Below are positions 9,282 to 40,686 of a stretch of 64,000 nucleotides of DNA, one piece after another; positions within the stretch are counted from its first letter, which is position 1; each line of letters starts with the position of its first letter. Below the pieces are notes generated by a model. The model saw nothing but the letters and a program-made list of their open reading frames with translations, did not search any database and was not told the origin of the DNA. Both the position numbers and the translations under genes were made by a program. The stretch is taken from NCBI GenBank assembly GCA_037833965.1, contig AP031358.1, forward strand, positions 2,550,001 to 2,614,000, in the 5' to 3' direction. This stretch comes from Marchantia polymorpha subsp. ruderalis (taxonomy: Eukaryota > Streptophyta > Marchantiopsida > Marchantiales > Marchantiaceae).

Positions 9282-9285
9282 AGTT

Positions 9286-13890: not shown

Positions 13891-13897
13891 TATAAAG
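13891..13897 (+). promoter_or_regulatory. TATA box of LTR copy 1
   Basis: TATAAAG, 36 bp after the end of the coiled-coil frame, followed by stem CAAGGC / GCCTTG at 13903-13919. Confidence 0.65.
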
Positions 13898-14647: not shown

Positions 14648-14675
14648 GTGTGTGTGTGTGTGTGTGTGTGTGTGT
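14648..14675 (+). repeat. TG dinucleotide microsatellite in U5 of LTR copy 1
   Basis: About 14 TG units. The same tract (TG or CA depending on strand) occurs about 200 bp from the 3' terminus in every LTR of the family, with varying length, for example near 18488-18528, 27475-27492, 38655-38670 and 40885-40905. Confidence 0.9.
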
Positions 14676-18498: not shown

Positions 18499-18529
<31 letters not shown>

Positions 18530-19280: not shown

Positions 19281-19288
19281 ATTTTATA
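19281..19288 (-). promoter_or_regulatory. TATA box of LTR copy 4
   Basis: TATAAAAT on the - strand, 36 bp after the normal stop position of the LTR-encoded ORF. Confidence 0.65.
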
Positions 19289-19324
19289 CCTTCTAAGTCC
19301 TAACTAGCACTACACTGCACTACG

Positions 19325-22135
19325 CTACACGCCGGCACGGAACCACGCTACACTACACTCCGCGGAACCTGTGCTTCGCCTCCTGCGCGACAGACTGCCG
19401 CGCACTAACTCCCTACCCTGCCAGTCTTCAGCTCAACTGCGCAGTCCCAAACGCTGCAACGCCGCGGACACCTCCGACTCGAGAGTGGACATGGTATCCC
19501 GCGCCTTCGACAGAAAAAAGTCTAACTTCTTCGCCACCGGCCGCCGACTCCTACTGTCACCTGACAACAACCCGGCTGCACGAAGCTCCAACTCACGCAG
19601 TGTGAGTTTCTTCTGCGCCGCCACTTCCCAGTGGGCGTAGCCCTTGAGACAGTGGGCGACTCGCCTCGCCATCTCCTCCTTCGTGCGATCCGCCTCTCGC
19701 CTGCGATCATCTTCAATTACCACCAACTGCGATTCGGCCTCCGCACGCTGAGCTCTCAATTCCCCGCACTCCGACTGCAGCCTGCGGATTAAATCCTCAT
19801 CCGCCTGTCGTGCGAGCTGACACTCCGCCAACAACCGCGTCTGTAGCACGAGCTCCTCTGACAGAACCTGATTCTGAGTCTTCTCAGAAATTAGTTCTTC
19901 TGTGGTCTTCACCACATCCCTGGTGAGCTCTTCCAGTCTCGCCTGCTTCAATGCGTCGTAGTGGGTGTGCGACTTCCGCACGAGATTATACTGTCCCCAC
20001 AAACACGCATGCTTCTCCCGTAAATCCTTAAGTTCCCGGTCCACCCTAGCTAGTAGCTTGCTAGTGTGGACTTTAGTGCGAGTCCGCCTGCGCACTAACT
20101 CGATGTATGACCCCGGCTGGAGTGGATCGGCGTATTTATCAAATTTGCGATCCAAGTACCTCAGCAGAGGTATTACCTGCTCAGAGAGCGCCGCCGCCGG
20201 CGCTCCAACAATTTCCTCCTCCTCTTCCTTGGTGTCTCCCGATCCCGACATTGCCTTTGTGTAGCCTCCTTCGTCATCATCCGAGGGAAGGATTTCGGTC
20301 GCCATTGATTGCGTTGGCGACTGACCCGAGTGGGGCTGCGAGTGGTCTACGGGTGCTGCCGCCGAAGGCACTCCCGCAGCTTCGCTGCTCCCCGCTAAAA
20401 TGTCCAAGGCGGTGGGTGAATGTGGCCGTGCTACATCCCCATCATCCGCTTGCCGCTCGTCAACCGTGTCCTCTTCGCCGCCGACGTCCGCCGCCGAAGG
20501 CGATCGAGCGGAATGTGTATGTGCGGGGTGTAATTGCGCATCGCGCACCCGAATTTCGTCCCGCGGACAGACAATCCGCTCCTCCGTTAGGTCCTGCGTG
20601 AGGGCTGCGTCTGGCCTGCGCGTAGGCGCATGTACCGGCGCCTGATCCGCCGCAGGCGCAGCGCCGAAGGCGTCTATCGCCGAAGGCGACAGAGCCGAAG
20701 GCCGCTCGCCCGATGTACCTGGCCCCGAAGGCCCTACCGCCGAAGGCGCATCTGCCGGCGGATCACACGCCGAAGGTGCGGTCTCCGCACGCTCCCTGCT
20801 CAAAACTCGTTGGCCCGAAGGCCCTGACGCCGAAGGCGCAAATCGCGGCGCGTTATACGCCGGAGGGTCTGGTCCCGAAGGCCCTTGACCCGAAGGCGGA
20901 TCTTCCGCCGGCTCCTTCCCCTTCCTACGTTGTATCGGGGGTGAATCCTGCCTACTCGTAGGCGGCCGCCTGTGCGTAGGCGAACTTTCTCTGCCTACGC
21001 GTAGGCGGAGGTCCACGTCCGCTTGAGATCGCCTATCCGCTGGAAATCGAATGTGCGTAGGCGGAACACTCGTCCGCATCACACGTGGTAACTCCGGAGG
21101 CCCTTGGCCCGAAGGCCGCATCTCGTCCGTCGGAGGTGTAGTGTGGTCCGCCGCTCCTGCGGCCGTCCGCGCTCTCTCGATCCTCTCCGGTGACGCACTT
21201 CCCTTCTCCGTGGTGATCGTCGCCGTGTCCGCGCTGCTGGCTGGTAACACGAGCCTACGCGCCTTCTGCTTCGGCCGGCTGCACACTTCGTGCAGTGGCC
21301 GCTGTCGTATGGGAGCAGTGGGTTCTCGATGCTGCTCCTCCTCTGACTCCTCTCTCCATCGTCGCTTCCGCGGCACTCTTGCTGCGGGTGGGCTTCTTCC
21401 CTCGTCCCGCCGTGTCGGCGGAGTAGAAGCTGGTGAATCCTCTACATCGGTGTCGACCTCGTTATCCCGCACATACTTCCGGGGATGGTCGACGGACAAT
21501 GGCGGAAAGCGAGCGAGCTCCACCGCGGTCAAACAATTCCTCTGCCAATAGAAATTTATCAAGAAAGGGGAGAGGTGATTGAGAGTTCCCCCCTTCTCCT
21601 CGAAGGCGTGCTGCCGCATCACTCTGTGCAAGATGCTTGCCCAGTGAACTAGAGCTCCGGCCAAGATGAGCTCCACAAAAGAAACCTGCCACAAGGTGAT
21701 GTACGAGGTGCGGTGTGGCTGCAGCAATTGCAGCAGCGCTGCCGCTAAAGTTCGGCGAAAGCGATCTTTGTAGTCGCGGATCTTGTACCCATTCTTGGTA
21801 GACCTCTCCCGTTTGAACAATTCCACAAATTGAGCCTCGTCCTGCTTCGACACCTTGACGCTCTCACTATCAAAGAGGAGGTACCCGTCGATGCCGGCAC
21901 ACCTCCCCAATGCCTGCGCCCAATCTTGGACGGTCCACCGATCTACATGCGGACGCAATCCGCGCGTAGGTGGTCGCTGTGGCTCCAGCCATTCGCGCAC
22001 CATGTCTACGCAAATGTAATTCCATCCCCACAGCAAGAAATCAAGCTTTCTTGCAATCAGCCGCTCCTCGAAGGCACGCAACCCGTTTTGTGGAAGCCGA
22101 AGCGGCAGCATCCGCAATCTGTTCAGTCTCGACAT
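19325..22135 (-). pseudogene. LTR-encoded ORF of copy 4, truncated by one late stop
   Basis: Open from the conserved Met at 22135 (also open upstream to an ATG at 22387) down to a TGA at 19435-19433. Relatives have CGA at that codon, so this looks like a C-to-T change. The stop removes the last 36-37 residues (basic tail ending in the family's conserved C-terminus), after which the frame stays open to the normal stop at 19325. The N-terminal domain, basic patch, PSA-type repeats (for example PSAVGPSG and PSASGPSG) and most of the coiled coil remain, so a nearly full protein could still be made. Confidence 0.85.
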
Positions 22136-23630
22136 CGCGTTCTTGAAATTAGCTTGCTCGCCAACTCTCTCTCTGCTCCACTCGAGCTTCTTGCTCCCTC
22201 TGCAAACTCTAAGCTCCCTCAATTCCAAATCGCGCGCACTCAATTCTCTCTCTCTCAACAAGTAATCCTCCGCGCAGCGATGTCTAGAATGTTTAACAGC
22301 TAGCAGGTGGACGCGCGCAGCTCGCACTAGAAAATGAAATCGCGAATTCAAGAATGGGGCGTCCTGCGTTTCCTGGTCGAAGGTCATGGTCGGCTCTCGG
22401 TCGTGAGGGTCGAATCACTTGATGGCCGTGCCGGCTCCGCGCTATAACGGCCTCCTCTCTCACGCGCGGCTTCACGCTCCGCCGACGCCGACTTAACTCA
22501 CACGCTCGAATTGGCGAATTTGAACTCCGCTAGCGTACTACGCAGCGGACATGGGTGCGCAGCGCCGAAGGAGGATTTCTCGCCTTGCGCGCTACACTCG
22601 TTCGTACCACTCTTCGGCCAATCCCCCTCCGCTGAAGGCGATCGTCCGCGCATCGGACAAAAGTTGAACTCCCTTCGGCGTAGGCGGAATCCCCGGCGGA
22701 ATCTCCGCCGGCGCGGAACTTCATCTGCCTGTGCGTAGACGCTCGCCTACGCGTAGGCGAATTCCGTCCGCGCTGCTGCGCTGGCGCCGAAGGCGTTGAC
22801 CGCGGTCAACAGGCTCCGTCTAGTCTGTCCATTTCTCGTCTCTCCGTCGGCGCTCTTGTCGCCGTCATTCCGTCCGACCGAAGGTGCATCCATCCGTTCC
22901 GTCCGTACAGTCCGTACGGTCCGTACGGACTTTACTACTCTAGTGGGTCCTCGCCCGTCCGCGCTGCTGCGCTGGCGCGGAAGGCGCCGTACAATTTCTA
23001 ACCCCGAAGGCGCATTTCTAGGGCCGAAGGCGGATTTCCCGCCGACGCCGAAGCGCCTGTGCGTAGGCGGACTTCGCTCGTCCGCCTGGGCAGAGGTTTC
23101 CTCGCCTACGAGTAGGCGATATTCGCGGCGGCCATCGCGCCGACGTCAAACCCTATTTCGCCTACGTGTAGACGAACTGCCTTCGTTCGCGCATAGGACA
23201 AACTTTCCTCGCCTACTCGTAGGCGAGAAGCTGAGTATCTTGCAACCTTCATAACTCCCAGAGTCCTCATCCGTTTGTGGCGTTCTTGGGCTCGTTAGAA
23301 TCAGCGCGTCGAGCTCTTTCCAACAAGACCCTAAACAAGTTGAGGCGTTTGGGAATTGACCAAATTCTGAAGGATTCCTCTAGCGCCGAAGGCGGATTTT
23401 GCGCCTTGCGCCGAAGGGGTTATTCCTTCAGAGCCCGCATGTAGGGTGGTGTCCGTCCCCGACGTTGCACCCAACTCCTGGATTCTACGAGTTCTCTCGA
23501 GAATCTCTGCGATCTTCCGATTTCACTCTGTTTTGATGCACCGAATGCTATTTACACTGCTGCCGCGGTACAGTTTTCCAAAAATGTTTTAATTTCCTCA
23601 ATAATACCAAAAGTGGGGTACCACAGATTA

Positions 23631-27175: not shown

Positions 27176-28240
27176 ATACACACTAAGATAACTATGGTGT
27201 AAGGGGATTTTGGAAATGTGATTTGGTCTCTTGTTCCTTGAAGTTTGGATAATCTATTTTTGTTTGAGTATACATGTAATAACCCACTAAAGGCTAAAAC
27301 TGCAATATAGTGGTAGAAAGGTCGAACCCACAGGGACAGAGGAACACACAGGGTACAAAGTGTCACGTTTTAACAGACTATTGAGGAGTTTGAATTCTCA
27401 GGCAACTGTCACTCCCAGAAATACTGCAAGTGTCCACTCGGAGCGCACTCGGAGGTCGCACAGTGCAGCGTAAAACACACACACACACACACCTGAAACT
27501 ACAGAAACACAACCCAGAGATCCGTCAGGACCTCTACTTCAAGATTTCAGGGGGAAAGTCTCTCGCGAGCACACTCGGCAAAGCTGCGGGCAGTGACTTC
27601 CAACTCCGGCTTTTACAACACTTCCACTAGCTTGCTGCTAGTGTAGGAAACCCGGTTTGGACTGCCTACTTCGGATCGAAGTCACTCAGACGCGGTGAAC
27701 AACACTCTCAACTCACAAAACGCGCAGAGAACACAGGTCCGCACTGAAGGACTCACTGAGAAACATTCCAGTAACACAACAACAGTCTATTGAAGAGTTT
27801 GAATTCTCAGGCACTTGTCATTCCCAGAAATACTACAGGGGTTACCCTCAAGGCACCTGCTGCAGCGTAACCTGAATTTACAACCAAGGCTTGCACGAAG
27901 TAGCAAAACTTCACTTTGGCATTCAGGGGAAAATTCCCAAGGAGTACAATCAGAAAGAAACACTCGAAGGTGTAGGGGCAAAACTGTTCAAGTATCTAAC
28001 TAGTCACTGGCTCTAAGCATCGGCAGTCACCCGCAGGTGCAGATCCGAACTACTCAAGTCTCTAACCGATGTACTAGCTCTGAACATTCGGCCGAAGGCC
28101 TTCAGCTACAAAATGCGGAACGCTAAGTTGTAACTCCTCATGCGTGGTGACAGAACTCAAGGACACAGACACGCAAAGGAAATGGGTTCCTGATCTATAC
28201 TTCTGAGTTTGGGAAAGAACCCCAGGCAAAACGCCTGGAA

Positions 28241-28250
28241 CTATTTTATA
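28241..28250 (-). promoter_or_regulatory. TATA box of the 3' LTR
   Basis: TATAAAATAG on the - strand, 37 bp after the ORF stop and just before the hairpin at 28238-28222. Confidence 0.7.
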
Positions 28251-28286
28251 CCTTCTAAGTCCTACCTAGCACTACACTGCACTACG

Positions 28287-31160
28287 CTATACGCCTGCAC
28301 GGAACCACGCTACACTACACTCCGCGGAACCTGTACTACGTCTCCTGCGCGGTCGACTGCCGCGCACTAACTCCCTACCCTGCCAATCTTCCGCTCGACT
28401 GCGCAGTCCCAAACGCTGCAACGCCGCGGACACCTCCACTTCGAGGGCGGACATGGTATCATGTGCCTTCGACAGAAAGGCATCGAGCTTCTTTGCTACC
28501 TTCCGCCGACTCCTACTGTCGCCTGACAACAACCCGGCTGCGCGCAATTCAAACTCACGCAGTGTGAGTTTCTCCTGCGCCTTCACTTCCCAGTGGGCGT
28601 AGCCCTTGAGACAGTGGGCGACACGCCTCGCCGTCTCCACCTTCGTGCGATCCGCCTCCTTCCTGCGATCCTCTTCAATTATCACTAATTGCGATTCGGC
28701 TTCAGCACGTTGCGCTCTCAATTCGCCACACTCTGACTGTAACCTGCGGATTAACTCTTCATCCGCCTGCCGTGCGAGCTGACATTGTTCCAACAACCGC
28801 GTCTGTCGCACGAGCTCCTCTGACAAAATCCGATTCTGGGCCTGCTCAGAAATGAGTGCTTCCTTGACCTTCACCTGCTCCTTGGTGAGCTCGTCCAGTT
28901 TCTCATCCTTCATCTTCTCGGAGTGCTTGTAGAATTTCTGATTAAGTTTATACTGACCCCACAAGCATGCATGCTTCTCCTTCAATTCCCTCAACTCCTG
29001 GTCCACTCTAGCTAACAGCTTGCTGGTGTGGACTTTAGTGCGAGTCCGCCTGCGCACTAACTCGATGTAAGATCCCGGCTGGAGTGGGTCGGCGTATTTA
29101 TCGACCTTGCGATCCAAGTACCTCAGCAACGGAATCACCTGCTTAGAGAGCGCCGCCGCCGGCGCTCCAACAATTTCCTCCTCCTCCTCCTCGGTGTCTT
29201 CTGCTCCTGACATTTCTTCCGTGGAGCCTCCGTCGTCATCATCCGAGTGGAGAATTTCAGTCGCCATTGATTGCGTCGGCGACTGCCCCGAGTGGGGCTG
29301 CACGTCATCGACGTGTGCTGCCTGCGAAGGCACGGCTGCAGCCTCGCTGCTCGTCGCTAAAATGTCTAAGGCGGAAGGCGAATGTACCCGTGTGGCATCC
29401 CCGTCGCTCGCTTGTTGGTTGTCTACCGCGTCCTCTCTGCCGCCGTCGCCCGCCGCCGAAGGCGATCGAGCGGAGGGTGGCTGCGCGGGGTTTGATTGCG
29501 CATCGCGCATCGAAATTTCATCCCGCGGACAGTCACTCCGCTCCTCCGTCTGTTGCTGCTCCCTTGATCGGTCCGTGGGGGCTGTGCCCGGCCCGTGCGC
29601 AGGCGCAATTGCCGGCGCCTTGTCCGCCGCAGGCGTAGCGCCGCGGACATCCATCGCCGAAGGCGACATGGCCGGGGGCCGCTCGCCCGATGTCCCTTGG
29701 CCTATAGGCCCTACCGCCGAAGGCGCATCTATCGGCGGACTTCCCGCCGATGGTGCGGCCTCCGCACGCTCCCTGCTCGTATCTCCTCGGCTCAAAGGCC
29801 CTTGCGCCGAAGGCGCAAATTGCGGCGCGTGGTGCGCCGGAGGGTCTGGCCCCGAGGACCGGTGTCTCGTAGGCGGTTCTTCCGCCGGCTCCTTCCCCTT
29901 CCTACGTTGGAACGGGGGTGATTCTTGCCTGTGCACAGGCGGCACGTGTGGAGTTGTCCTGTGCACAGGCGAGCGCCTGTGCACAGGCGGACTGCTCCTT
30001 CCCACGCGTAAGCGTAGATCCACGTCCACTTGTGATCGCCTGTCCGCGGAGGCTCGTCCGTCCGCGGAGGCTCGTCTGTGCGCAAACGGAACATCTGTCC
30101 GCGTCGCACGTGGTAACTCCGGAGGCCCTTGGCCCGTAGACGGCCTCTCTCCCGTCGAGGTCGCAGCGTGGCCCGTCGCTCCTGCGGTCGTCCGCGCTTC
30201 CTCATGCCTCTCTGGCGACGCACTTCCTTTCTCCGTCGCAATCGTCGCCGTGTCCGCACTGTCGGCTGGTAACACCAGTCTGCGTGCCTTCTGCTTCGGC
30301 CGGCTGTATGGCTCGCACAGCGGCCGCGGTCGAATGGGAGCAGAGGGTTCTTGATGCTGCTCCTCTTCAGACTCTTCCCTCCATCGCCGCTTCCGCGGCA
30401 CTCGTGCTGCAGGAGTGTGTCTCCCTTCGTCCCTCCGCCTTGATGGGGTAGAAGTCGGTGACTCCTCTGCATCAGTGTCGACCTCATTCTCCCGCACATA
30501 CTTCCCGGGATGGTCGATGGACAATGGCGGAAAATGTTCAAGCTCCGCCGCTGTCAAACAATTCCGCTGTCGATAAAAATTGATGAGGAAAGGAGAAAGA
30601 TGGTTTAGAGTTCCCCCCTTCTCTTCAAACGCGTGCTGTCGCATCACCCTGTGCAGGATGCTCGCCCAGTGAATTGGAGTTCCCTCGATGACGCACTCCA
30701 CAAAAGAGACCTGCCACAATGTGATGTAGCAAGCGCGGTGCGGCTGCAGTAATTGCATCAGCGCCGCGGACAAAGTCCGGCGAAATCGATCCTTGTAATC
30801 ACGGGTCCTGTACCCATTCTTGGTAGACCTCCCGGTCTTGAACAGCTCCATAAATTGCGCCTCTTCCTGCTTGGTCACCTTGATGCTCTCACTGTCGAAA
30901 AGGAGATGCCCTGGCATGCCAGCACATCTTCCCAACGCCTGCGCCCAATCTTGGACTGTCCACCGGTCAACATGCGGACGCAATCCGCGCGAGGGTGGTC
31001 CCTGTGGCTCTAGCCACTCGCGCACCATATTCGCACAGATGTAGTTCCATCCCCATAGCAAGAAATCGAGCTTTCTTGCTATTAAGCGCTCCTCGAAAGC
31101 GCGCAGCCCGTTCTGTGGTAGGCGAAGTGGCACCATCCGCAATCTGCTCGGTCTCGTCAT
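28287..31160 (-). CDS. LTR-encoded protein of the 3' LTR, intact
   Basis: 957 codons from the conserved Met (ATG at 31160); the frame is also open from an ATG at 31412 (1041 residues). No internal stop. Nearly identical to the protein at 6382-9237, differing by scattered substitutions and one extra PVHR-type repeat unit. Because U3 of the 3' LTR is part of the genomic RNA, this copy sits as the last gene of the element, after integrase. It could be expressed from a spliced or subgenomic message or from its own U3 promoter; I see no decisive signal for any of these. Function unknown. Confidence 0.8.
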   Translation of the reverse strand: MTRPSRLRMVPLRLPQNGLRAFEERLIARKLDFLLWGWNYICANMVREWLEPQGPPSRGLRPHVDRWTVQDWAQALGRCAGMPGHLLFDSESIKVTKQEEAQFMELFKTGRSTKNGYRTRDYKDRFRRTLSAALMQLLQPHRACYITLWQVSFVECVIEGTPIHWASILHRVMRQHAFEEKGGTLNHLSPFLINFYRQRNCLTAAELEHFPPLSIDHPGKYVRENEVDTDAEESPTSTPSRRRDEGRHTPAARVPRKRRWREESEEEQHQEPSAPIRPRPLCEPYSRPKQKARRLVLPADSADTATIATEKGSASPERHEEARTTAGATGHAATSTGERPSTGQGPPELPRATRTDVPFAHRRASADGRASADRRSQVDVDLRLRVGRSSPPVHRRSPVHRTTPHVPPVHRQESPPFQRRKGKEPAEEPPTRHRSSGPDPPAHHAPQFAPSAQGPLSRGDTSRERAEAAPSAGSPPIDAPSAVGPIGQGTSGERPPAMSPSAMDVRGATPAADKAPAIAPAHGPGTAPTDRSREQQQTEERSDCPRDEISMRDAQSNPAQPPSARSPSAAGDGGREDAVDNQQASDGDATRVHSPSALDILATSSEAAAVPSQAAHVDDVQPHSGQSPTQSMATEILHSDDDDGGSTEEMSGAEDTEEEEEEIVGAPAAALSKQVIPLLRYLDRKVDKYADPLQPGSYIELVRRRTRTKVHTSKLLARVDQELRELKEKHACLWGQYKLNQKFYKHSEKMKDEKLDELTKEQVKVKEALISEQAQNRILSEELVRQTRLLEQCQLARQADEELIRRLQSECGELRAQRAEAESQLVIIEEDRRKEADRTKVETARRVAHCLKGYAHWEVKAQEKLTLREFELRAAGLLSGDSRSRRKVAKKLDAFLSKAHDTMSALEVEVSAALQRLGLRSRAEDWQGRELVRGSRPRRRRSTGSAECSVAWFRAGV

Positions 31161-32657
31161 TGCGTTCCTGGGGTTCGCTCGCCCGCTCATTCTACTTCCG
31201 CACCGCCCGAGCGCCTTTCTCTCTCGGCAAACTCTAATCGCCCTCAATTCCAAATCACGCGCATTCACTTCTCCCTCAATCAACAAGAAATCTCCTGTGC
31301 GACGACGTCGAGAATGTTTAGCAGCCAGCAGATGGATGCGCGCAGCGCGCACAAGAGATTGGAATCGCGAATTCAAGAATGGGACGTTCTCCGCCGCCCG
31401 GTCGAAGGTCATGGTCGGCTCTTGCTCGTGAAGAACGTCTCACTTGATGGCCGCGCCGGCTGTACGCTGGAACAGTCTTCGCTCTCACGCGCGGCTTCAC
31501 GCTCCGCCGTCGTCGATTAAACTCTCACGCTCGAATTGGCGGATTTGAACTCCGCGAGCGTATTACCCCGCGGACATGGGGGCGTAGCGCCGAAGGCGAG
31601 TTTTCCGCCTTGCGCGGTACACTTGTTCGTACCGCCCCTCGGCCAATCCCCCTCTGCCTTGACGCGTGTGTCCGCATGTCGGACAAAAGTTCAACTCCTA
31701 CCTGTGCGCAGGCAGACTCCTCGGCGGATTCTCCGCCGGCGCTGAACTTGAACATCCTCTTGTGCACAGGCGTTCGCCTGTGCGCAGGCGAATTCCGTGC
31801 GCGGCGTCGCGCTGGCGCGGAAGGCGTTGACCGTGGTCAGCCGTCTCCGTCCAGTCTGTCCGTTCCTTGTCTCTTCGTCGGCGCTTCCGCCGCCGCAACT
31901 CCGTCCGTCCAAGAGCGCATCCACCCGTCCCGTCCGCATGGTCCGTACCGATTTGATTACTCTGGCGGCTCTTCCGCCGTACGCGGCGCTGCGCTGGCGC
32001 GAAAGGCGCTGTACACTTTCTACCTCACAAGGCGCATTTCTAGGGCCCAAGGCGGATTTCCCGCCGACGCCGAAGCGCCTGTGCACAGGCGACCTGTGCG
32101 TAGGCGGACTTCGCGCCTCCCCAAACCCTACTTCGCCTGTGCACAGGCGAAGGCCTTCGTCCGCGCATAGGACAAAACTTGATTCCCCCTTCCGCGTAGG
32201 CGGAATTCGCGCCGGTGGCGAACTCTTTCCGCCGTAGGCGACCGCCTCCGTTTCTTCCAATAGTGATAACTCCCTAAGTCCTCATCCGTTCCAAGCGTTC
32301 TTGGACTCGTTGGAATCAGTGCGTCGAGTTCTTTCCAACGGGACCCTAACTTGGTCAAGGCGCCCGAGGGTTGACCTAATTATGGAGGGTTTCCCTACAG
32401 CCGCGGACGCAACCTCCAAAGGCGGGTTTTGCGCCTTGCGTCGTAGGGGTCCTAACTGCAGAGCTCGCAGGGAGGGTGGTGCCTGTCCTTACTGCTGCAC
32501 CCCAAATCCCAGATTCTACAAGATCCCTCGAGAATCCCCGCGATCTTCCGGATTCACTCCGTTTTGATGTACCGAAGGCTATTTACAATGCTGCCAGGGT
32601 ACAGTTTTCCAAAAAATGTTTTAATTTCCTCAAAATTGCCAAAAGTGGGGTACCACA

Positions 32658-32670
32658 TGCTCCCCTCCTC
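32658..32670 (-). promoter_or_regulatory. Polypurine tract (plus-strand primer)
   Basis: GAGGAGGGGAGCA on the - strand, directly abutting the TG of the 3' LTR and about 25 bp after the pol stop. This is the classical PPT position and fixes the LTR boundary upstream of the LTR-encoded ORF. Confidence 0.9.
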
Positions 32671-32694: not shown

Positions 32695-35526
32695 TCACAT
32701 GTGGTATTTCTTCAACCGCCACCCGTTCACTCGGGTGCCTAACAAATCGCCGGCCAGGTCCGCCAGTTGGATGGATCCATTCGGGAAGACTTCGACAACC
32801 CTGTAAGGTCCCATCCATCTTAGGTGTAGTTTGCCTGGGAATCTGGCATGCCTGCTGTCGTAGAGCAATGCCAAATCACCCGCCTGCAGGAGTACCGGTT
32901 TGATCTTTTTATCGTATCTCTCCTTTCGGCGGAGCTGGATTTTCCTGGTGCGATCTTCGGCGTCTCGTCTCCTCTCATCCAGCAGCGTGACCTCCTGTAA
33001 CCTGTAGAGCTGACTCTCCTCTGCGCCCATCCTCTGCAAATCCAACGTTCGTTGGGTGGGTACTTCAAATTCGATCGGGAGGATCGGGTGTTGCCCATAC
33101 ACCAGAAAGTATGGTGTCTGTTTGGTCGTGATCTTCTCAGCTGTCCGGTACGCCCATAGAGCGGCTGCTAGCTTCGTATCCCAGTCGTGAGCGTGATTCA
33201 CCGTGACCTTGAGTAGTATTTTACACAGCAGACCATTGGACTTCTCCGTCAGTCCATTTGCCTTGGGATTGTATGGAGTAGTCTTCCGGTGCTTGATGTG
33301 GAAATACCGTGTCAGATCTTCGATGATCTGATTCAGAAAATGCGTGCCCCGGTCGCTGACTAGCTCTAAGGGACATCCGTAGCGTGTGATGATCGACTCA
33401 AACAAGAAGGCTGCCACTGTGGCAGCATCATCCCTTCTGGTGGCCCTGACCTCTACCATTTTGGTGGCGTAGTCCGTTGCTACCAGAATGTAGCGCCTTC
33501 GTGTACTTCTAGTCACTGGTTGTATCGGCCCTACAAAGTCAATGCCCCACTTTTCGAAAGGTGCTAGAGGCATGATGGGAGTCAGGGGCCAACGTGTTGT
33601 AGGCGTCGGTCTCCCCGTCCTCTGGCAACTGTCGCACTTGCGGATGTAATCGAGAACATCCTTAAACATGGTCGGCCACCAATACCCCGCATTTAGAATC
33701 TTTGTGACCGTGTTCCTGGTGGCATAGTGTCCACCCGCCTCCTCTGTATGCATCGCACTCACTAGTCTTGGTACCTCTGATTCCTCCAGGCATCTGCATA
33801 AGCGCTCATCTGCCATCTTCTTGAACAAAACCCCCTGCTGGAGTTGGTACGGGCCTGCCTTATGAATAAAGACAGTTCGCTGTTCCAAATCCATGCCTAC
33901 GGGACACTGGAGGGTTGGCAGATATCGATACAGGTCGGCATAGCGGGACTCATGTCCTGCAGACAACTGAAATAACTCTTCATCTGGAAAATCGTCCACC
34001 AATTCCTCCTCTGTCGGCTGGGTCCATAATCGGGACAAGTAATCCGCATTTTCGTGGTGCACCCCTTTCCTGGTCTGGACTGTGTAGGTGAACTCTTGTA
34101 GTAACAACACCCACCTGGCGATCCGACCGGATAGGTCGGCTTTCTTGACTAGGTGTTGCAATGCGTAGTGATCCACATGGAACACAAACTCGTAGCAGAT
34201 TAGGTAGTGACGGAACTTTTTACAGGAGTACACCATCCCCAACGCTTCTCTCTCCGTCGTGGTGTACTTCCGCTCTGCTAGAGACAGCTGTCGGCTCGCG
34301 AAGTAGATCGGGTAGTCCTTTTTGTTGTCATCCTTTTGACTCAGTACTACACCGATGGCGAATGCAGATGTATCAACGTAAACATGGAATGGTCGATTCC
34401 AGTCTAGACTCCTTAGTACGGGAGCAGTCGTGAGTTTCGCTTTAAGAGCCTCAAATGCTGACTGCTGGTTCGCACCCCAAGCATAGGGCTCGTCCTTCTT
34501 CAACAACTTGGTCAGGTCCGCCGCCAGTATTGCATACAGGTGTATGAATCTTCGGTAGTAGCCCACATGACCCAGGAATGCTCGCAGCTCTCTTAGATTC
34601 GTGGGTGGCTCAAGCTCGAGTATAACCTTGACCTTCTCGATGTCCACCGCAATGCCGTCTGCCGAGACCCGATGACCCAACAAGATCCCACTAGTCATAA
34701 AGAAAAAGCACTTCTCGGGATGCAGTGATAAACTGCTCTCTCTACATTTGTCGAAGGTCTGCTTCAAGTGACTTAGGTGTTCAGACCGCTTCCCAAAGAC
34801 ACAGAAGTCATCTATGAATATTTCCAGGAACTTCCTCAGTTGTTCCTGGAAGATATTGGTCATCATCCGTTGAAAGGTGGCAGGCGCGTTGCACAGACCG
34901 AAGGGCATCTTGTGGTATGCGTAAGTTACCCAGTCGGTTGTGAACGTAGTTTTATCCTTGTCCTGTTCCCGGATAGACACCTGATTGTAACCTGAGAACC
35001 CATCCAGGAAGCTATAACATTCATGTCCTGCGACATGGTCTAGAATGGCATCCGTGAATGGTAACGGGTGATGATCCTTGCGTGTTGCTGCATTCAACTT
35101 CCGGAAATCCTGACACACTCGTATCTTACCCGTCAACTTCTTGGGTACGATAACAATCGGCGACACCCACTCACTGCTGAGCACAGGGTAAATAATACCA
35201 GCACTCAAGTACTTATCTATCTCCTCCTTAACTAGCAAGGAGTATTTTGGGTTGAGGCGATACTGGCGCTGTCGTATGGGTACTGAGTCGTCCAGTAAAT
35301 CGATACGGTGTTCCCCATACCGTGCAGGTATCCCCTTCATGTCTTCGATCTTCCAGGCGAAGACGTCGACATAATGGCTAAGGAATGCCTGTACTTTCCT
35401 TAGCTCGTCTCCTCTCACTGCGCTTGATACCTTCAAGCACTTGTCGGGACTGAGTTGTACTTCGTGACAGTCACTAGGGTCGACAATGCCCTCGGTGTGA
35501 CTCGTCTCACTCCTTCCCAGTCCCAC
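32695..35526 (-). CDS. Pol: reverse transcriptase - RNase H - integrase
   Basis: 943 residues, in frame with the protease ORF and reached through the UAG at 35538-35536. RT about 110-290, with LDGFSGYNQ (174-182) and catalytic FIDDF (237-241). RNase H about 370-500, with D385 (VYVDTS), E427 (TTEREAL) and D452 (VDHYAL). Integrase: zinc-binding H593/H600/C631/C634, catalytic D663 (GIDFVGP), D725 (SDRGTHF) and E761 with the D-D-35-E spacing. GPY motif at 906-908; the protein ends without a chromodomain about 30 residues later. All catalytic residues are present. The first residues after the stop (QLTVGLGRSE) lie in the same frame, so 35526 is an artificial left edge rather than an initiation codon. 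Expected product: part of a Gag-Pol polyprotein cleaved by the element's protease. Confidence 0.95.
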   Translation of the reverse strand: MGLGRSETSHTEGIVDPSDCHEVQLSPDKCLKVSSAVRGDELRKVQAFLSHYVDVFAWKIEDMKGIPARYGEHRIDLLDDSVPIRQRQYRLNPKYSLLVKEEIDKYLSAGIIYPVLSSEWVSPIVIVPKKLTGKIRVCQDFRKLNAATRKDHHPLPFTDAILDHVAGHECYSFLDGFSGYNQVSIREQDKDKTTFTTDWVTYAYHKMPFGLCNAPATFQRMMTNIFQEQLRKFLEIFIDDFCVFGKRSEHLSHLKQTFDKCRESSLSLHPEKCFFFMTSGILLGHRVSADGIAVDIEKVKVILELEPPTNLRELRAFLGHVGYYRRFIHLYAILAADLTKLLKKDEPYAWGANQQSAFEALKAKLTTAPVLRSLDWNRPFHVYVDTSAFAIGVVLSQKDDNKKDYPIYFASRQLSLAERKYTTTEREALGMVYSCKKFRHYLICYEFVFHVDHYALQHLVKKADLSGRIARWVLLLQEFTYTVQTRKGVHHENADYLSRLWTQPTEEELVDDFPDEELFQLSAGHESRYADLYRYLPTLQCPVGMDLEQRTVFIHKAGPYQLQQGVLFKKMADERLCRCLEESEVPRLVSAMHTEEAGGHYATRNTVTKILNAGYWWPTMFKDVLDYIRKCDSCQRTGRPTPTTRWPLTPIMPLAPFEKWGIDFVGPIQPVTRSTRRRYILVATDYATKMVEVRATRRDDAATVAAFLFESIITRYGCPLELVSDRGTHFLNQIIEDLTRYFHIKHRKTTPYNPKANGLTEKSNGLLCKILLKVTVNHAHDWDTKLAAALWAYRTAEKITTKQTPYFLVYGQHPILPIEFEVPTQRTLDLQRMGAEESQLYRLQEVTLLDERRRDAEDRTRKIQLRRKERYDKKIKPVLLQAGDLALLYDSRHARFPGKLHLRWMGPYRVVEVFPNGSIQLADLAGDLLGTRVNGWRLKKYHM

Positions 35527-35529
35527 AGT

Positions 35530-35538
35530 TAATTGCTA
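35530..35538 (-). promoter_or_regulatory. UAG-CAA-UUA readthrough context between protease and RT
   Basis: The stop ending the protease frame is TAG followed by CAA TTA, matching the UAG-CAR-YYA leaky-stop signal known from tobamoviruses. The downstream RT frame continues in phase 0. The match is seen directly; readthrough activity is inferred. Confidence 0.75.
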
Positions 35539-36480
35539 TTCGTCTTCCGGCTGAATAGCTTCCGGCTCTTCTTCTTCTCCCACCGAACAGCAGGCAACGA
35601 ATCCCACGAAATAATCGGATTCGGTACCACTGGAATCCGATCGCGCGGTCGACTCACTGTCCCCGCCCGATGTGTAACCTGCACTTGTCGATGGGGTCTC
35701 TCCTTCGTGTCTGACCCTATTCCAGGGCACCGTAATGGTTTTGGTCGGTTCCGAAGGATGGGGAAACTTAAGGCGATGCCTTCGCCAATCACATCTGACT
35801 TGTGCGCCATATAGCCATGGTCGCTCGAGCAGAACGTCATAGCCCTGCTTCATCATCGGTTGAAGGATGATATACGTCAACCGAAAGTCCGCACCCCCGA
35901 TGATTGTCTTGACATTGCGCAGCATACCTGCAGGCATTCTCCGCGTCTGATCCGCTAATCTCAACACACGCTTCGAGGGTTCGTATTGACTGAACCCCAA
36001 GGCTCTCGCGGTATCCTCCGTCATTATGTTGACTCCTGATCCAGAGTCGATTGGCACCCTGCGTACACAACACCCTGCTATTTCCACATCGATCTCTGGT
36101 GGCCCTTGGTCTTCGCTCTCCACTTGATATACTTGAGAGGATGTGGATGCGCGCGGCTTCCGCGGACGCCGTAGCGAAAGCATCAACATTCTCCGATATG
36201 TCTTATTGTCCTCCAAGAGCTGCTTGAACGTGATGTTCACTTTTCGACTCCCGAGATCTTCGACCAAGTCATAGTGGGCGCGTTGGGTCGCCGGGGTCGG
36301 CGACGCTCTGCGAGGTTCCACGGTGGCTGCCAACTTCGCCCCAAGGGAGGATGTCAAGTCTGGCCGCGGTGGGTCCTTTTGAGTGCGGATCGCTTCCTTC
36401 AACAGGTTGGTTACCTCGTTGCGGATATCCGGAGCATAGTCCCGTTTCAGCAAGCGCACTGGCTCGTCCTCGACTGCTGT
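35536..36480 (-). CDS. Protease region of the polyprotein
   Basis: An open stretch of about 314 codons between two in-frame UAGs. Numbered from 36459, it carries the retropepsin active site IDSGSGVNIM with D138-S139-G140, followed by the family-like pattern ILQPMMKQGYDVLLERPWL about 80 residues on. The tail is acidic (SVGEEEEPEAIQPEDE). There is no ATG at its start; it is in frame with gag, so it is expected to be made by suppression of the gag stop or to be part of an ancestral unbroken polyprotein. The function would be maturation cleavage of Gag-Pol. Confidence 0.85.
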   Translation of the reverse strand, partial: TAVEDEPVRLLKRDYAPDIRNEVTNLLKEAIRTQKDPPRPDLTSSLGAKLAATVEPRRASPTPATQRAHYDLVEDLGSRKVNITFKQLLEDNKTYRRMLMLSLRRPRKPRASTSSQVYQVESEDQGPPEIDVEIAGCCVRRVPIDSGSGVNIMTEDTARALGFSQYEPSKRVLRLADQTRRMPAGMLRNVKTIIGGADFRLTYIILQPMMKQGYDVLLERPWLYGAQVRCDWRRHRLKFPHPSEPTKTITVPWNRVRHEGETPSTSAGYTSGGDSESTARSDSSGTESDYFVGFVACCSVGEEEEPEAIQPEDE

Positions 36481-38367
36481 CTAGGGGCGCACTGCTGGTG
36501 CCTCTCGCGTAGCCGAAGACTTCCGTGCAGGTCGCAAGTCGGACTTGCTGGATGTCTTCTCCTTCCCTTTTCCCGTCCGGTCGTCGGTTCTCCGTTCGTG
36601 CTTGCGAGTGTCACGCTCTTGCTCCTTCGATTTCTTGGAACTACGAGTTTCGACCCGTGCGCACATAACCTCTTCCGCCGGCCATTCTTCGTCTTCATCA
36701 TCCCCGTCTGAACCTACTTCGACCTGGTTAACTTGGACGTCCTCCTTGGCAGGAGGGTTCACAAATCGTACCGCTGGCCGAGGGACTGGTGGCTGATCAC
36801 ACTCTGGCGCAGTATGCCCGGTCTTCTTGCAATTACTACATGTCGGAACATAATCGTTTCGCCTTTTTGGATGGGGACACTGCGGTGAGAAGTGTCCAAC
36901 TTCCCCGCAATTATAACAAGCTCGCGGTGGCGGTGGGTCAAACGTCCCTGGAGGTGCTCTCCGCCTCACGGGTACTGTAGTGGCCCGATCCACCGGATGA
37001 TATCGTGGGACTTGCATTGCTGAAACTGCAGTAGGGGTAGGAACCGACTGGACGGCGTAGGCTGTCTCTTCGCTAGCCTCTCCATAGTACTGGGGGTGCT
37101 CTCCATAGTACGGTTGTGCCCACTCTACTGCGTTGACTGGATATGACGGACGGGTGGTAAGGCACTCGGTGTTTGCATGTCCCACCGCCCCGCACGTAGT
37201 ACACCATAAGTTCGCTCGCACTCTCCCGGGTGATTTTCGGCGATCATGCCCGCCTACCACTTGAACCTTGAGATCGGCGAAGTCCTTCACAAGGGTCTCC
37301 ATCTTCGAGGCTATGTCTCCCGGCGCTCTGTCCGTAGTCACTCGTCGGGTGCCCTTTTTCTTCGCTGCCCCATGCTTCTTCCTCTTCTTCTCCTCCTCCG
37401 ACGATGAGGTTTCCTCTTCATCGGATGAGGAACGGTTCTCGTCCGAAGACGAGTCCTCCGATGACGGAGTTGTACCTCTACGTCGTCTTCGCCCTCCCTT
37501 CGGTTTTCGCTCCTTCGACTCCCGTCTCTCTCTCCCTCTTCGGTTGAGAGTGGAAGTTTCGAAGGCTTCTGCCGATGCAATCACATCCTCAAAAGTGTCG
37601 CACTTGCTGCGTCGGCAAAAGGTCTCCATCTCCCGAGTTAAACCGGTCACGTACCAATCCACAGCTTGTTGTACCGAGAAAGGGGACCCTGGTCCGGTTT
37701 TCGGTATTCTGTCAAGGAGGTCCAGAAATCTCTCAGTGTAGTCACGCAGACTCTCCTTCTTCTCTCGCTGCAAATTACGTAACTTTGTCAAAACCCGGCT
37801 GTCGTAGCCGAGCTCGCGGAAGCGGCGAAGGAACTTCTCCTTCAGCTGGGCCCATGTTGTCAACCCAGTCGGATCGATGCTCTCGTGATTGTACCAACTC
37901 CTCGCTTTCTTCCGCAGAAGGCTTGGAAAGATCCTTAGTCGGTCGTCGTCTGCGATCTCGCGATTGGCAATAGACACCGATTCGAACAACTTGATGTATG
38001 AATCTGCATCGTCGTCATCCCCACTCCCTTTATACTTTGGGTAGGAATGTTTAGTAATCGGCTGAGGTAGCCGCACATTGGCTTGTCCGTCCGCCATCGG
38101 TGTGTCTGTCGACGGTTCTCGGGCGGTCGTTTCTAATTCACGAGGCGGGTCCGTGCAAGGAATATCTAGTAGAACTGTAAGCACCAAGTTTGGTTCCGAG
38201 TCGCCGGGGGTAGGTTCCCCAAGGATGTCGGCCGAACTAGGCTTAGGTACTCTTTTTGGTGTTTTCTTGTTTTGACGCCGTGTCTCTTCCACGGCCTTCT
38301 CTGAATCTCGTCGGAACCTGCGGACAGCTCTAGCACTTAGGTTGCTCCCGCTAGCCCCAGTCGACAT
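36481..38367 (-). CDS. Gag: capsid-like domain with three CCHC zinc knuckles
   Basis: 628 residues from ATG 38367, the first ATG after the PBS in this frame. Retrotransposon gag domain about 105-275 (YPKYKGSGDDDDADSYIKLF, RKKARSWYN, LTTWAQLKEKFLRRFRELG, LRDYTERFLDLLDRIP). Basic and Ser/Glu-rich linker about 275-345. Zinc knuckles CX2CX4HX4C at 389-402, 484-497 and 510-523, the nucleic-acid-binding part. The C-terminus is Lys/Glu/Arg-rich. Ends at TAG 36483-36481. Role: forms the virus-like particle and packages the RNA. Confidence 0.95.
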   Translation of the reverse strand: MSTGASGSNLSARAVRRFRRDSEKAVEETRRQNKKTPKRVPKPSSADILGEPTPGDSEPNLVLTVLLDIPCTDPPRELETTAREPSTDTPMADGQANVRLPQPITKHSYPKYKGSGDDDDADSYIKLFESVSIANREIADDDRLRIFPSLLRKKARSWYNHESIDPTGLTTWAQLKEKFLRRFRELGYDSRVLTKLRNLQREKKESLRDYTERFLDLLDRIPKTGPGSPFSVQQAVDWYVTGLTREMETFCRRSKCDTFEDVIASAEAFETSTLNRRGRERRESKERKPKGGRRRRRGTTPSSEDSSSDENRSSSDEEETSSSEEEKKRKKHGAAKKKGTRRVTTDRAPGDIASKMETLVKDFADLKVQVVGGHDRRKSPGRVRANLWCTTCGAVGHANTECLTTRPSYPVNAVEWAQPYYGEHPQYYGEASEETAYAVQSVPTPTAVSAMQVPRYHPVDRATTVPVRRRAPPGTFDPPPPRACYNCGEVGHFSPQCPHPKRRNDYVPTCSNCKKTGHTAPECDQPPVPRPAVRFVNPPAKEDVQVNQVEVGSDGDDEDEEWPAEEVMCARVETRSSKKSKEQERDTRKHERRTDDRTGKGKEKTSSKSDLRPARKSSATREAPAVRP

Positions 38368-38413: not shown

Positions 38414-38431
38414 TCCCCGGCAGCGGCGCCA
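38414..38431 (-). promoter_or_regulatory. Primer-binding site, tRNA-Asp type
   Basis: TGGCGCCGCTGCCGGGGA on the - strand matches the complement of the plant tRNA-Asp(GUC) 3' end (TGGCGCCGTTGCCGGGGA) at 17 of 18 positions. It lies 22 nt inside the LTR end, farther than usual. Confidence 0.8.
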
Positions 38432-38453: not shown

Positions 38454-38677
38454 TGTAATAACCCACTAAAGGCTAAAACTGCAATATAGTGGTAGAAAGG
38501 TCGAACCCACAGGGACAGAGGAACACACAGGGTACAAAGTGTCACGTTTTAACAGACTATTGAGGAGTTTGAATTCTCAGGCAACTGTCACTCCCAGAAA
38601 TACTGCAAGTGTCCACTCGGAGCGCACTCGGAGGTCGCACAGTGCAGCGTAAAACACACACACACACACACCTGAAA
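38454..38677 (-). mobile_element. 5' LTR, 3'-terminal 224 bp adjoining the PBS
   Basis: Matches the last 224 bp of the 3' LTR and ends GGGTTATTACA at 38454. It stops abruptly next to the TG/CA microsatellite at CCTGAAA, where the + strand fragment beginning TGTGGTAACCC follows. Confidence 0.9.
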
Positions 38678-40686
38678 TGTGGTAACCCACTTTTTGTTTT
38701 TTGTCGGAACTAAAACATTTTTGAATAGTAAGTACCGCGGCAGCAGCTGTAAATAGTAATCGGTACGCGAAACCAGAGTAAAAAGAGGATCCAGGACAGT
38801 CAAGGGGTTTTGGGCTTAGGCCACAGTGGGACGCTTGGGACGGAACGGGCGGTTCATGCTGCAGGATCAGCTTCGAGCACCTTCGGCGGTAAATCACTCA
38901 TAACTTTCTCAATTCGTAACGCCTTGAGTTGCTTCGGGTCTTGTTGCAAAGAGCTCGCGACGCTCGTTCTAACGAGACCAAGAACTTGTGAAACGGATGA
39001 GAGGTCACTGAGTTATGAGTGTCGGAAGTTACTAATGGGGGGGCCTTTGGTAGAGCGACTTTGGCGGTACGCCTTCGGCGGAAGAACCGCCGGAAGATGC
39101 GCCTTGGGCGGTAGACGCCTTCGGTCAACGCCTTCGGGTCAACGCCTTCGGCGATACGGGAGAGTGCATTCGGCGGAAGAGTGAAACCCTCATAACTTTC
39201 TCAATGCGCAACGCCTCGACTTCGTTGGGGTCTCGTTGGAAAGAGCTCGACGCGCTGATTCTAACGAGCCCAAGAACGCCACGAACGGAGGAGAATTCCG
39301 GGAGTTATAAAGGTCGCAAGATACTCAGCTTTCCGCCTGCGCACCGGCGAAGAAAGTTTTGTCCTATGCGCGGACGAAGGAAGTTCGCCTGTGCACAGGC
39401 GCTTCGGCGTGGGCGGGAAATCCGCCTTGGGCCTTAGAAATGCGCCTTGTGAGGTAGAAAGTGTACGGCGCCTTCTGCGCCAGGTCATCGCCGCGGACGG
39501 CCAGGACAACGCCGCGGACGGACAAGTCAGCGCAGCGGACGGACAGCTCAGCGCCGCAGACAGCCAGGTCATCGCCGCGGACGGACTGTGGATAGGCGAA
39601 CGCCTTCGGCGGAAGAGTAAAACCGACATTACTTTCTCAATTCTTAGCGGTTTGACTTGATTCGGGTCTCGTTGGAAAGAACTCGACGAGCTGGTTCCAA
39701 CGAGACCAAGATCTCTTGAAACGGATGAGGCATCACCGAGTTAGAAGCGGCGGAAGTTTCTGATATGGAGGGCCTTCGGTGCTAACATTTAGAGGGGCCT
39801 TCGGCGTTAACACTTAGAGAGGCGGCTTACGCCGCGGACGGACGCGGACGCCTGTGCACAGGCGGACGGCCTGTGCACAGGCGGGTTGCAAGTAGGCGGC
39901 CTGTGCACAGGCAGGCCTTCGGCGGAAGGGTAAAATTGACATAGTGTTTTCAATTCTTAATGGTTTGCGGTGGTTAGGGTCTCGTTGGAAAGAGCTCGCG
40001 ACGCTCGTTCCAACGAGCCCAAGAACGCCTGGGACGGATGGGAATTTAGGGAGTTAGGACTATCGGAAGATACGTAGACGTTCTCCTTCGGCCCTAGATG
40101 TTCGCCTTCGGGGTTACGCTTCCGGGAATTCCGCCTTCGGAGGTAGGGAGATCGACTTTTGTCCGATGCGCGGACGGACGCCTTCGACGGTTGCAGGCCT
40201 TCGGCGGAAGAGTAAAACAGTGATAACTTTCTCAATTCTTATTCGTTTGACTTGGTTAGGGGCTCGTTGGAAAGAGCACAACACGCTCGTTCCAACGAGC
40301 CCAAGAACGTTGCAAACGAAGCAGGGATCCGTGAGTTATGGGCGTCGGGGTGACTGTTAGAGATTGACAAGGTGTGGAAGTGCGTCTTTGGCGGTTGGAC
40401 GCATTCGGCGGTGCGCGGAAGGAGATTTCCTCCGGCGAGGATCGGGTGGTCATGAATGTAGAATGTTCAGGTGTGGCAGTGGCGGCCTGCGAGTAGGCGG
40501 CTTGCGTGTAGGACGCGTGGAACCCACAGTCCTCGGATTTTGGAGAAGGAATTTTGGCCTAGGTTCAGAGATCTTGCGGGGCCCATATCTTTGCGATGGA
40601 CGGTCGGATGGATCTGAAATTTTGTGGGGCCGTTGATCTCGGCCGGCCACGCCTGCCTGCAAATTTTCCGCCTCAGATCTTGGGTG
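38678..40686 (+). mobile_element. Truncated + strand LTR (U3 part) of the second subfamily, inserted in the 5' LTR
   Basis: Starts with the subfamily-2 terminus TGTGGTAACCCACTTTTTG and runs about 2 kb through U3-like GC-rich repeats, then is cut off at 40686 by the 3' terminus of a - strand LTR. It contains no trace of the LTR-encoded ORF, promoter or 3' end. The 5 bp before it are TGAAA; TGAAA recurs at 40908-40912 beside the same microsatellite in the next LTR, which fits an insertion at that target site. Confidence 0.75.
38886..40350 (+). repeat. Array of five about 135-bp units with a conserved hairpin
   Basis: Units at about 38886-39024, 39187-39315, 39620-39755, 39936-40070 and 40218-40350. 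Each begins with a form of ATAACTTTCTCAATTC, has a core CTCGTTGGAAAGAGCTC followed by CCAACGAG(A/C)CCAAGA, and ends near GAGTTAT. In unit 4 the arms CTCGTTGGAA (39981-39990) and TTCCAACGAG (40008-40017) are perfectly complementary. The spacers between units hold GCCTTCGGC and GCCTGTGCACAGGC palindromes. Normal LTRs of the family carry one such unit in U3 (about 5166-5285, 12170-12300, 23245-23365, 32265-32380). Confidence 0.8.

What the first reader, a model, noticed from the sequence alone, without database searches (positions are those of the whole stretch)
27275..32657. A roughly 950-residue protein gene located inside the LTR (U3) of a plant Ty3/gypsy element
The polypurine tract (32658-32670) abuts TGTGGTACCCC, the outer ends carry the ATACA duplication, and the frame 31160-28287 lies wholly between the LTR ends, upstream of the TATA box. 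Each provirus therefore carries the gene twice, once as the last gene of the genomic RNA. Known parallels by position are MMTV sag and lentiviral nef, both in the U3 region at the 3' end. Athila-like elements carry an accessory ORF between pol and the 3' LTR; a shift of the PPT to a site upstream of such an ORF would swallow it into the LTR. The protein (conserved domain, basic patches, Ser/Pro-rich repeats, coiled coil) has no function I can name.
Basis: partly seen in the sequence, partly recalled or inferred. Interest (0 to 1): 0.88.

Follow-up and report, generated by a model that had tools for sequence, protein, structure and literature searches.

The report
A gene inside a retrotransposon's LTR
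In a liverwort, a family of virus-like jumping genes carries an extra protein gene inside its repeated end segments, so that even lone leftover ends can hold that gene; evolution has conserved its protein, but what it does is unknown.

Summary
LTR 27275-32657 (TGTGG...TTACA) follows a polypurine tract just after pol. A frame of 957 codons (31160-28287; 1041 from an upstream ATG) lies wholly in U3 and stops 36 nt before a TATA box. The genome is a liverwort, almost certainly Marchantia polymorpha. Of 39 genomic copies fetched, 31 align from the first to the last LTR position, 14 have perfect 5-bp target duplications (solo LTRs) and 22 keep the full frame. Two other families carry it too: E (in the window, solo LTR, 984 aa) and L050 (apparent solo LTR, 853 aa, 54-58% identical in two conserved regions). 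Selection is clear between A and E: dN/dS 0.12 (N-terminal region), 0.26 (C-terminal region), 0.93 in the linker; 3 of 3 coding indels are multiples of three, against 4 of 18 outside. The 28 protein relatives found are from M. polymorpha (26) or unnamed (2); no known domain was convincing. AlphaFold gives a confident coiled coil at the C-terminus and no usable N-terminal model. Best reading: a liverwort retrotransposon accessory gene resident in U3, a positional parallel of MMTV sag, probably regulatory; that function is inferred. A link to Athila ORFs was not found. New variant of a known kind.

The parts
27275..32657 (-). LTR A, the 3' LTR, 5383 bp, TGTGG...TTACA
   Evidence: polypurine tract junction; same limits in other copies
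28287..31160 (-). LTR gene, 957-aa frame from the Met shared with homologues (1041 aa if read from the ATG at 31412)
   Evidence: ORF; homologue start; dN/dS
28243..28250 (-). TATA box (TATAAAAT, LTR position 4408), 36 nt after the stop codon of the LTR gene; same in C and E, one base different in L049
27270..27274 (.). target-site duplication ATACA
46086..46090 (.). target-site duplication ATACA
32658..32670 (-). polypurine tract
32695..35526 (-). pol: RT, RNase H, integrase; its frame follows a UAG of readthrough type at 35536-35538
35536..36459 (-). protease region, same frame as gag and pol
   Evidence: Asp_protease_2 E 0.0011, below its cut-off
36481..38367 (-). gag: capsid and CCHC knuckles; the stop at 36481-36483 was not seen in other copies
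38414..38431 (-). primer binding site TGGCGCCGCTGCCGGGGA, 22 nt from the LTR end (tRNA-Asp type, recalled)
   Evidence: sequence
38454..38677 (-). end of the original 5' LTR, identical to LTR A
38678..40686 (+). truncated LTR of a related family, nested in the 5' LTR
   Evidence: start resembles that of L049
40687..46085 (-). LTR B, outer part probably the original 5' LTR, inner part apparently from another copy; its gene is broken
4880..10245 (+). LTR C, solo LTR, TSD CCGAC on both sides, with a 1035-aa frame at 6130-9237
18305..23625 (-). LTR E, solo LTR of a related family, TSD GATTA on both sides, 984-aa frame 19433-22387 (ends 36 residues before the A protein)
12983..14871 (+). partial LTR of a further related family

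Best explanation
It is a real accessory gene that belongs to the LTR itself. In this liverwort Ty3/gypsy lineage the U3 segment, between the polypurine tract and the TATA box, encodes a roughly 950-residue protein in the sense of gag-pol. Shown: its position, its presence in LTRs of at least three families (A, E, L050), its open frame in many copies, and purifying selection on its two end regions. Inferred: the last stretch of the genomic RNA (or a transcript started in the first part of U3, as with MMTV sag) is the message. Inferred: the protein forms multimers through its C-terminal coiled coil, enters the nucleus through its basic clusters, and acts as a regulator of the element, most likely on the element's own LTR chromatin or transcription, or on its RNA or cDNA complex. 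A consequence of the position is that each provirus carries two copies and a solo LTR can keep one together with the promoter it may serve, so gene number is uncoupled from gag-pol number.
For: Limits and TSDs in 39 copies; E and C are solo LTRs with TSDs and open frames; L050 is a 4958-bp LTR with an 853-aa frame and a 4-of-5 TSD, and L049 is a solo LTR with TSD GGTTC and a decayed copy. dN/dS A-E 0.12 in residues 85-400, 0.26 in 701-1041, 0.93 in the linker; A-L050 0.26 and 0.18 in the two end regions with near-saturated dS. Indels: 3 of 3 in the frame are multiples of three, 4 of 18 outside. In the two end regions, variants shared by two or more of 41 copies are 84 synonymous to 49 nonsynonymous, singletons 101 to 133 (P 0.0003; L023 left out as a duplicate). 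Frame kept in 22 of 39 fetched copies. C-terminal model: one helix of 166 residues, block means of pLDDT 95-98 over model residues 81-180. Eleven basic clusters in the 1041-aa form, nine of them after residue 84. A 26-nt tag from the end of the gene occurs 2264 times exactly; the polypurine-LTR junction 682 times.
Against: No expression or translation data. No recognised domain, so the regulatory role rests on shape and analogy. No TATA motif was found in U3 upstream of the gene. Over the whole frame, shared and single variants do not differ (P 0.31); the two-region split was taken from the A-E profile. Only 40 of 4270 first-look candidates were scored, and even the window's copies B and C are not in that list, so the sample is partial. 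17 of 39 fetched copies do not have the full frame. In a hand check, 9 of 23 polypurine-LTR junctions had the exact gene-end tag near the expected offset. No relative outside Marchantia was named, also none in Riccia sorocarpa, whose pol is up to 76% identical.
Confidence: 0.8

Rival explanations
1. The protein is not a regulator but a structural or assembly factor (gag- or env-like role), acting in particles through its coiled coil.
For: Long coiled coil. Sense accessory ORFs of other plant elements are often called env-like (PMC7264820).
Against: No gag or other structural domain in the LTR protein; the element has its own gag with capsid and zinc knuckles; a low-complexity Pro/Ser linker and basic clusters suit a nuclear protein better. 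No transmembrane test was run.
Confidence: 0.25
2. The frame is maintained by DNA- or RNA-level constraint on U3 (enhancer or packaging signal) and is protein-coding only by chance in a G+C-rich LTR.
For: LTR is 57% G+C; the R-U5 part shows that strong nucleotide constraint or exchange exists in this LTR (90-97% A-E identity).
Against: Differences sit at third positions in the two end regions (for example 12, 4 and 34 differences at positions 1, 2 and 3 of aligned codons 101-200), indels keep the frame, and 500 random sequences never gave more than 458 open codons.
Confidence: 0.02
3. The gene belongs to a separate element that inserted into one LTR and was then copied with it.
For: Nested insertions are common here: the 38678-40686 piece, and L010 and L044, whose flanks resemble the same LTR (by eye).
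Against: The gene has a similar place relative to LTR start and LTR end in A, C, E and L050. No search was made for a short duplication right around the gene, so an ancient origin of this kind stays possible.
Confidence: 0.05
4. The gene was a regular ORF between pol and the 3' LTR in an Athila- or Tat-like ancestor and was taken into the LTR when a polypurine tract arose upstream of it.
For: Mechanically simple, since the polypurine tract sets the U3 start. Only 37 nt separate the pol stop from the LTR. Accessory ORFs between pol and the 3' LTR are common in several plant lineages (PMC7264820; PMC11963269).
Against: No sequence match to such ORFs. Only 36 nt separate the stop codon from the TATA box, leaving little room for an old U3 start after the gene. 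No intermediate element seen.
Confidence: 0.3

Closest known systems
Mouse mammary tumour virus sag (superantigen ORF in U3)
   Same: A protein gene inside U3 of the LTR; U3 of MMTV also holds a promoter that drives it (PMC9412291, passages).
   Different: No sequence match; the Marchantia frame is about 950 codons and the predicted protein shape is a long coiled coil with a low-complexity linker; a plant retrotransposon, not a retrovirus; no promoter shown.
Lentiviral nef
   Same: Accessory gene at the 3' end that reaches into U3 (recalled, no call).
   Different: nef only overlaps the LTR (recalled); here the whole gene lies inside it.
Additional ORFs of plant LTR elements (Athila and Bagy2 env-like; Grande, RIRE2 and Retand antisense ORFs)
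   Same: Accessory coding regions at the 3' side of pol, kept in most copies; nuclear or DNA-binding role suspected (PMC7264820, two of three parts read; PMC11963269, abstract and discussion).
   Different: Those lie between pol and the 3' LTR and several are antisense; here the ORF is sense and inside the LTR, and no shared domain was found.
VANC anti-silencing proteins
   Same: A transposon-encoded trans factor that acts on target sequence of its own kind of element is the role I think most likely (PMC12859917, passages).
   Different: Encoded by DNA transposons (VANDAL, recalled); no homology shown; role here untested.
[not shown]
   Same: Ty3/gypsy elements without a second RNase H, reported from both Marchantia genomes studied (PMC10508981, passages).
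   Different: A word search of that paper's text gave no hit for an ORF in the LTR, LTR length, solo LTR or PBS; lineage membership was not tested here by a tree.

Membership tests
Ty3/gypsy LTR retrotransposon | RT and RNase H upstream of integrase in pol | tested here: met
   RVT_1, RNase H, Integrase_H2C2, rve in that order
Ty3/gypsy LTR retrotransposon | two LTRs with TG...CA ends and a short target duplication | tested here: met
   14 of 39 copies with a perfect 5-bp TSD; ATACA in the window
Ty3/gypsy LTR retrotransposon | PBS after the 5' LTR and polypurine tract before the 3' LTR | tested here: met
   the PBS is 22 nt from the LTR end; tRNA type recalled, not tested
Chromovirus | chromodomain at the C-terminus of integrase | tested here: not met
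   none in the pol ORF
Tat lineage with second RNase H | additional archaeal-type RNase H domain | tested here: not met
   [not shown]
Athila lineage | Athila-type ORF between pol and the 3' LTR | tested here: not met
   37 nt between pol stop and LTR; no matching Pfam model in 30 members of the LTR protein family
Athila or Tat lineage | position in an RT tree with named references | not tested
   no named Athila reference was fetched
Retand-type accessory ORF | antisense ORF with TRP28 domain between pol and LTR | tested here: not met
   ORF is sense and inside the LTR; no such Pfam model matched
MMTV sag-like U3 gene (works like) | whole ORF inside U3 of the LTR | tested here: met
MMTV sag-like U3 gene (works like) | own promoter in U3 | tested here: inconclusive
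   no TATA motif in U3 upstream of the ORF; TATA-less promoters not covered; no RNA data
MMTV sag family | sequence homology to Sag | tested here: not met
   no such Pfam model matched the LTR protein or its relatives

The most novel reading that the evidence does not exclude
The LTR is a self-contained selfish unit: U3 encodes a trans-acting factor whose target is the same LTR (activation or release from silencing), so solo LTRs are living genes that keep supporting the family after gag-pol is lost. This U3 gene arose within liverworts and evolved convergently with MMTV sag.
Probability: 0.25. Interest if true: 0.88.

Novelty: new variant of a known kind. Interest (0 to 1): 0.7.

Why it matters
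Plant LTR retrotransposons are described with accessory ORFs between pol and the LTR, and solo LTRs are usually treated as non-coding leftovers. Here the LTR itself is a gene of nearly 1000 codons under purifying selection, and an exact tag from the gene's end occurs 2264 times in the genome of a model plant, so solo-LTR formation can keep a coding gene rather than remove it. It offers an experimentally tractable case for asking what an LTR-resident protein does, and it warns that masking LTRs can hide real genes.

Tried and rejected
Chance frame in a G+C-rich LTR: rejected. Recent nested separate element: not supported by the copies seen. Known domains: nothing convincing in Pfam (of 30 members, CENP-K matched 2 at best 0.0018, Extensin_1 one at 0.00019 and SCNM1_acidic one at 0.0013, which I take as coiled-coil and low-complexity similarity), in NCBIfam (two proteins, best E 0.31) or in PDB sequences (best E 0.46). 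PF20167 (Transposase_32) in the genome: no hit, but no control genome rang either, so this proves nothing. My impression that the N-terminal region has the rhythm of the plant-transposon (Athila ORF) domain rests on memory; no test supports it. Structure of the N-terminal region: mean pLDDT 46, all helical, too weak for a fold search, so none was run; none was run on the coiled coil either. Riccia and other plants: no relative named in two protein searches, whose reach is limited to shared five-residue words and to length. M. polymorpha protein P0003 had only a 65% best match in the genome although P0056, also from M. polymorpha, matched at 100%; unexplained. Matching 23 polypurine-LTR junctions (all listed on C1 and on C2 up to 23.4 Mb) by hand with the gene tag found the tag within 100 bases of the expected offset in 9 of 23; I do not know whether the others lack the gene or only the exact tag. 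Papers: searches listed no paper whose title or abstract start reports a gene inside the LTR of a plant retrotransposon. These were seen as listings, some cut (20 of 560, 12 of 72, 8 of 208), one search found no paper, and the library is open-access only, so something in print may have been missed. Retrosat2 ORF0 (PMC3485330, passages) is described as upstream of the gag-pol ORF.

Full report
WHAT WAS CLAIMED AND WHAT IS THERE. The window holds a minus-strand Ty3/gypsy element whose 3' LTR is 27275-32657 (5383 bp). On the minus strand the order is pol stop (32697-32695), polypurine tract (32670-32658), then TGTGGTACCCC, the LTR start. The LTR ends at TTACA followed by the target duplication; ATACA stands (plus-strand reading) at 27270-27274 and outside the other LTR at 46086-46090. 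Inside the LTR an uninterrupted frame runs to 28287, of 1041 codons from the first ATG (31412) or 957 from the ATG at 31160. A TATA box (TATAAAAT) begins after 36 nt. The frame is therefore wholly in U3. In 500 first-order Markov resamplings of the LTR the longest open run was 458 codons, against 1050 observed.

WHICH ORGANISM. The genome (241 Mb, nine contigs) contains a 100% match, over all 1211 residues, to a pol protein named Marchantia polymorpha MPTK2_3g07970 (P0056), so it is almost certainly M. polymorpha or a very close form. One other M. polymorpha protein, P0003, matched at 65% at best, which I cannot explain.

THE LTR LIMITS HOLD IN OTHER COPIES. One search scored 40 of 4270 first-look candidates and listed 41 matches; I fetched 39 of them with flanks (not the window's own, nor one partial match inside the L025 stretch). 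31 of 39 align from the first to the last LTR position; 14 of 39 are solo LTRs with perfect 5-bp duplications (13 independent, since L022 and L023 share flanks); 11 are preceded by the polypurine tract (by eye; the strict string of the script marked 4); 10 are followed by the PBS region, one of them flanked by internal sequence on both sides; 5 are interrupted or mutated. The frame is uninterrupted in 22 of 39 (21 at 1041 codons and one at 1046). In the window, C (4880-10245, TSD CCGAC) and E (18305-23625, TSD GATTA) are solo LTRs with frames of 1035 and 984 codons. Copies B and C of the window are not in the list, so that list is partial even among near copies.

IT IS AN OLD ARRANGEMENT. E differs from A by about 13-18% in the aligned DNA; its frame ends 36 residues before that of A. 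Two much more diverged copies were found with an M. polymorpha protein as bait: L050 is a 4958-bp LTR, apparently solo, with a 4-of-5 target duplication (GATTG and AATTG), that encloses an 853-codon frame, and L049 is a 4948-bp solo LTR with a perfect duplication (GGTTC) that encloses a decayed copy. A third, L048, showed the gene remnant and the LTR end but no LTR start in the piece fetched. The L050 protein is 170 of 312 identical to A in the N-terminal region and 186 of 322 in the C-terminal one.

SELECTION. Between A and E, dN/dS is 0.12 in residues 85-400, 0.26 in 701-1041, 0.93 in the linker and 0.69 in residues 1-84 (profile per 100 codons). Between A and L050 the two end regions give 0.26 and 0.18, with dS near saturation. 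All 3 indels inside the frame are multiples of three, against 4 of 18 outside. Among 41 close copies (L023 dropped as a duplicate), variants found in two or more copies are 84 synonymous and 49 nonsynonymous in the two end regions, singletons 101 and 133 (P 0.0003); over the whole frame the difference is not significant (P 0.31), and the split into regions was made after seeing the A-E profile. The reading is that the protein is selected while the family spreads and drifts once inserted.

THE PROTEIN. Two searches of 5.8 billion proteins gave 28 relatives, 26 named Marchantia polymorpha and 2 unnamed. Pfam, NCBIfam and PDB sequences gave nothing convincing. The C-terminal model has one helix of 166 residues with block means of pLDDT 95-98 over 100 of them: a long coiled coil. 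The N-terminal model is helical but unusable (mean pLDDT 46). A Pro/Ser-rich linker, an acidic stretch and eleven basic clusters (nine after residue 84) complete it. An exact 26-nt tag near the end of the gene occurs 2264 times in the genome; the polypurine-LTR junction occurs 682 times. In a hand check of 23 listed junctions, 9 had the tag at about the expected offset.

HOW IT MOST LIKELY WORKS. Shown: position, conservation, coding constraint. Inferred: it is made from the 3' part of the genomic RNA or from a U3 transcript (MMTV Sag is driven by a U3 promoter in B cells, PMC9412291), forms multimers and acts in the nucleus as a regulator of its own LTR or of the replication complex. Transposon-encoded anti-silencing factors with their own DNA targets are known in plants (VANC, PMC12859917). 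A repeat unit lies near the start of the LTR in A, C and E (one) and in L049 and L050 (two, overlapping); it could be a target, but this is a guess.

THE ELEMENT'S OTHER ODDITIES. Gag, protease and pol share one frame with two stops in this copy. The protease-pol stop is UAG CAA UUA, the context that makes the TMV stop leaky (CAR YYA, PMC2754532, passages). A stop stands at the same place before pol in 48 of 48 scored copies (open frame 946 in each). With the stop codon left free in a 21-nt pattern 541 genomic matches appear, the same number as with UAG fixed; leaving the codon two places upstream free instead gives 549, so that control alone is weak. The gag-protease stop, by contrast, is not a stop in any of the 100 listed places of 389 matches (the other 289, the window's own among them, were not listed), so it looks like private damage of this copy. 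This contrast makes programmed readthrough of the second stop likely.

THE 5' SIDE. Next to the PBS stands the last 224 bp of the LTR, identical to A; then comes a 2009-bp piece of another family's LTR; then the full LTR B. A and B differ at 9 sites in the first 1250 columns, where A and C differ at 30, but at 68 against 62 in the rest (P 0.0016, boundary chosen after seeing the table). The simplest account is that a related LTR landed in the 5' LTR, another copy landed in that, and recombination fused the outer part of the original LTR to the inner part of the newcomer.

Noticed in passing
window 35536-35538, minus strand: Protease and pol are separated by UAG CAA UUA, a TMV-type leaky stop, the same in 541 of 541 matches of the flanking pattern; a stop stands there in 48 of 48 scored pol copies (weak control). 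A likely programmed readthrough in a Ty3/gypsy element.
   Followed up: partly
window 36481-36483, minus strand: The stop between gag and protease looks private to this copy: none of the 100 listed places of 389 matches has a stop there.
   Followed up: partly
window 38454-46085: 5' LTR side is a mosaic: end of the original LTR, a truncated foreign LTR (38678-40686) and an apparently recombinant full LTR B.
   Followed up: partly
window 38414-38453, minus strand: The PBS lies 22 nt from the LTR end, and the gap holds an inverted repeat AAGAAG...CTTCTT; the gap sequence recurs, with a one-base loop change in one copy, in the 10 copies that precede a PBS. How the LTR end is then made during integration is unclear.
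   Followed up: no
G000 contigs, for example C2:31348192-31381764 and C3:22619736-22642151: Internal regions repeat at about 11.18-11.20 kb, the length of one LTR plus one internal region: tandem arrays.
   Followed up: no
window 27275-28250 against 18305-19280: The R-U5 part of LTRs A and E is 90-97% identical, mostly more than the coding part; strong non-coding constraint or recent exchange.
   Followed up: no
window 25895-26476, plus strand: A 193-aa frame with an SAD/SRA domain, E 1.3e-39, stands beside the element.
   Followed up: no
window 38874-40372: The nested foreign LTR has five diverged copies of a repeat of about 176 bp; A, C and E have one unit near the LTR start, L049 and L050 two overlapping units.
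   Followed up: partly
G000:C8:5920574-5948572: Another Ty3/gypsy family with single frames of about 2039 aa sits in a tandem array with 8120-bp spacing.
   Followed up: no
L010, L044: The flanks of these solo LTRs resemble the U5 part of the same LTR family (by eye), so the family seems to insert into itself.
   Followed up: no
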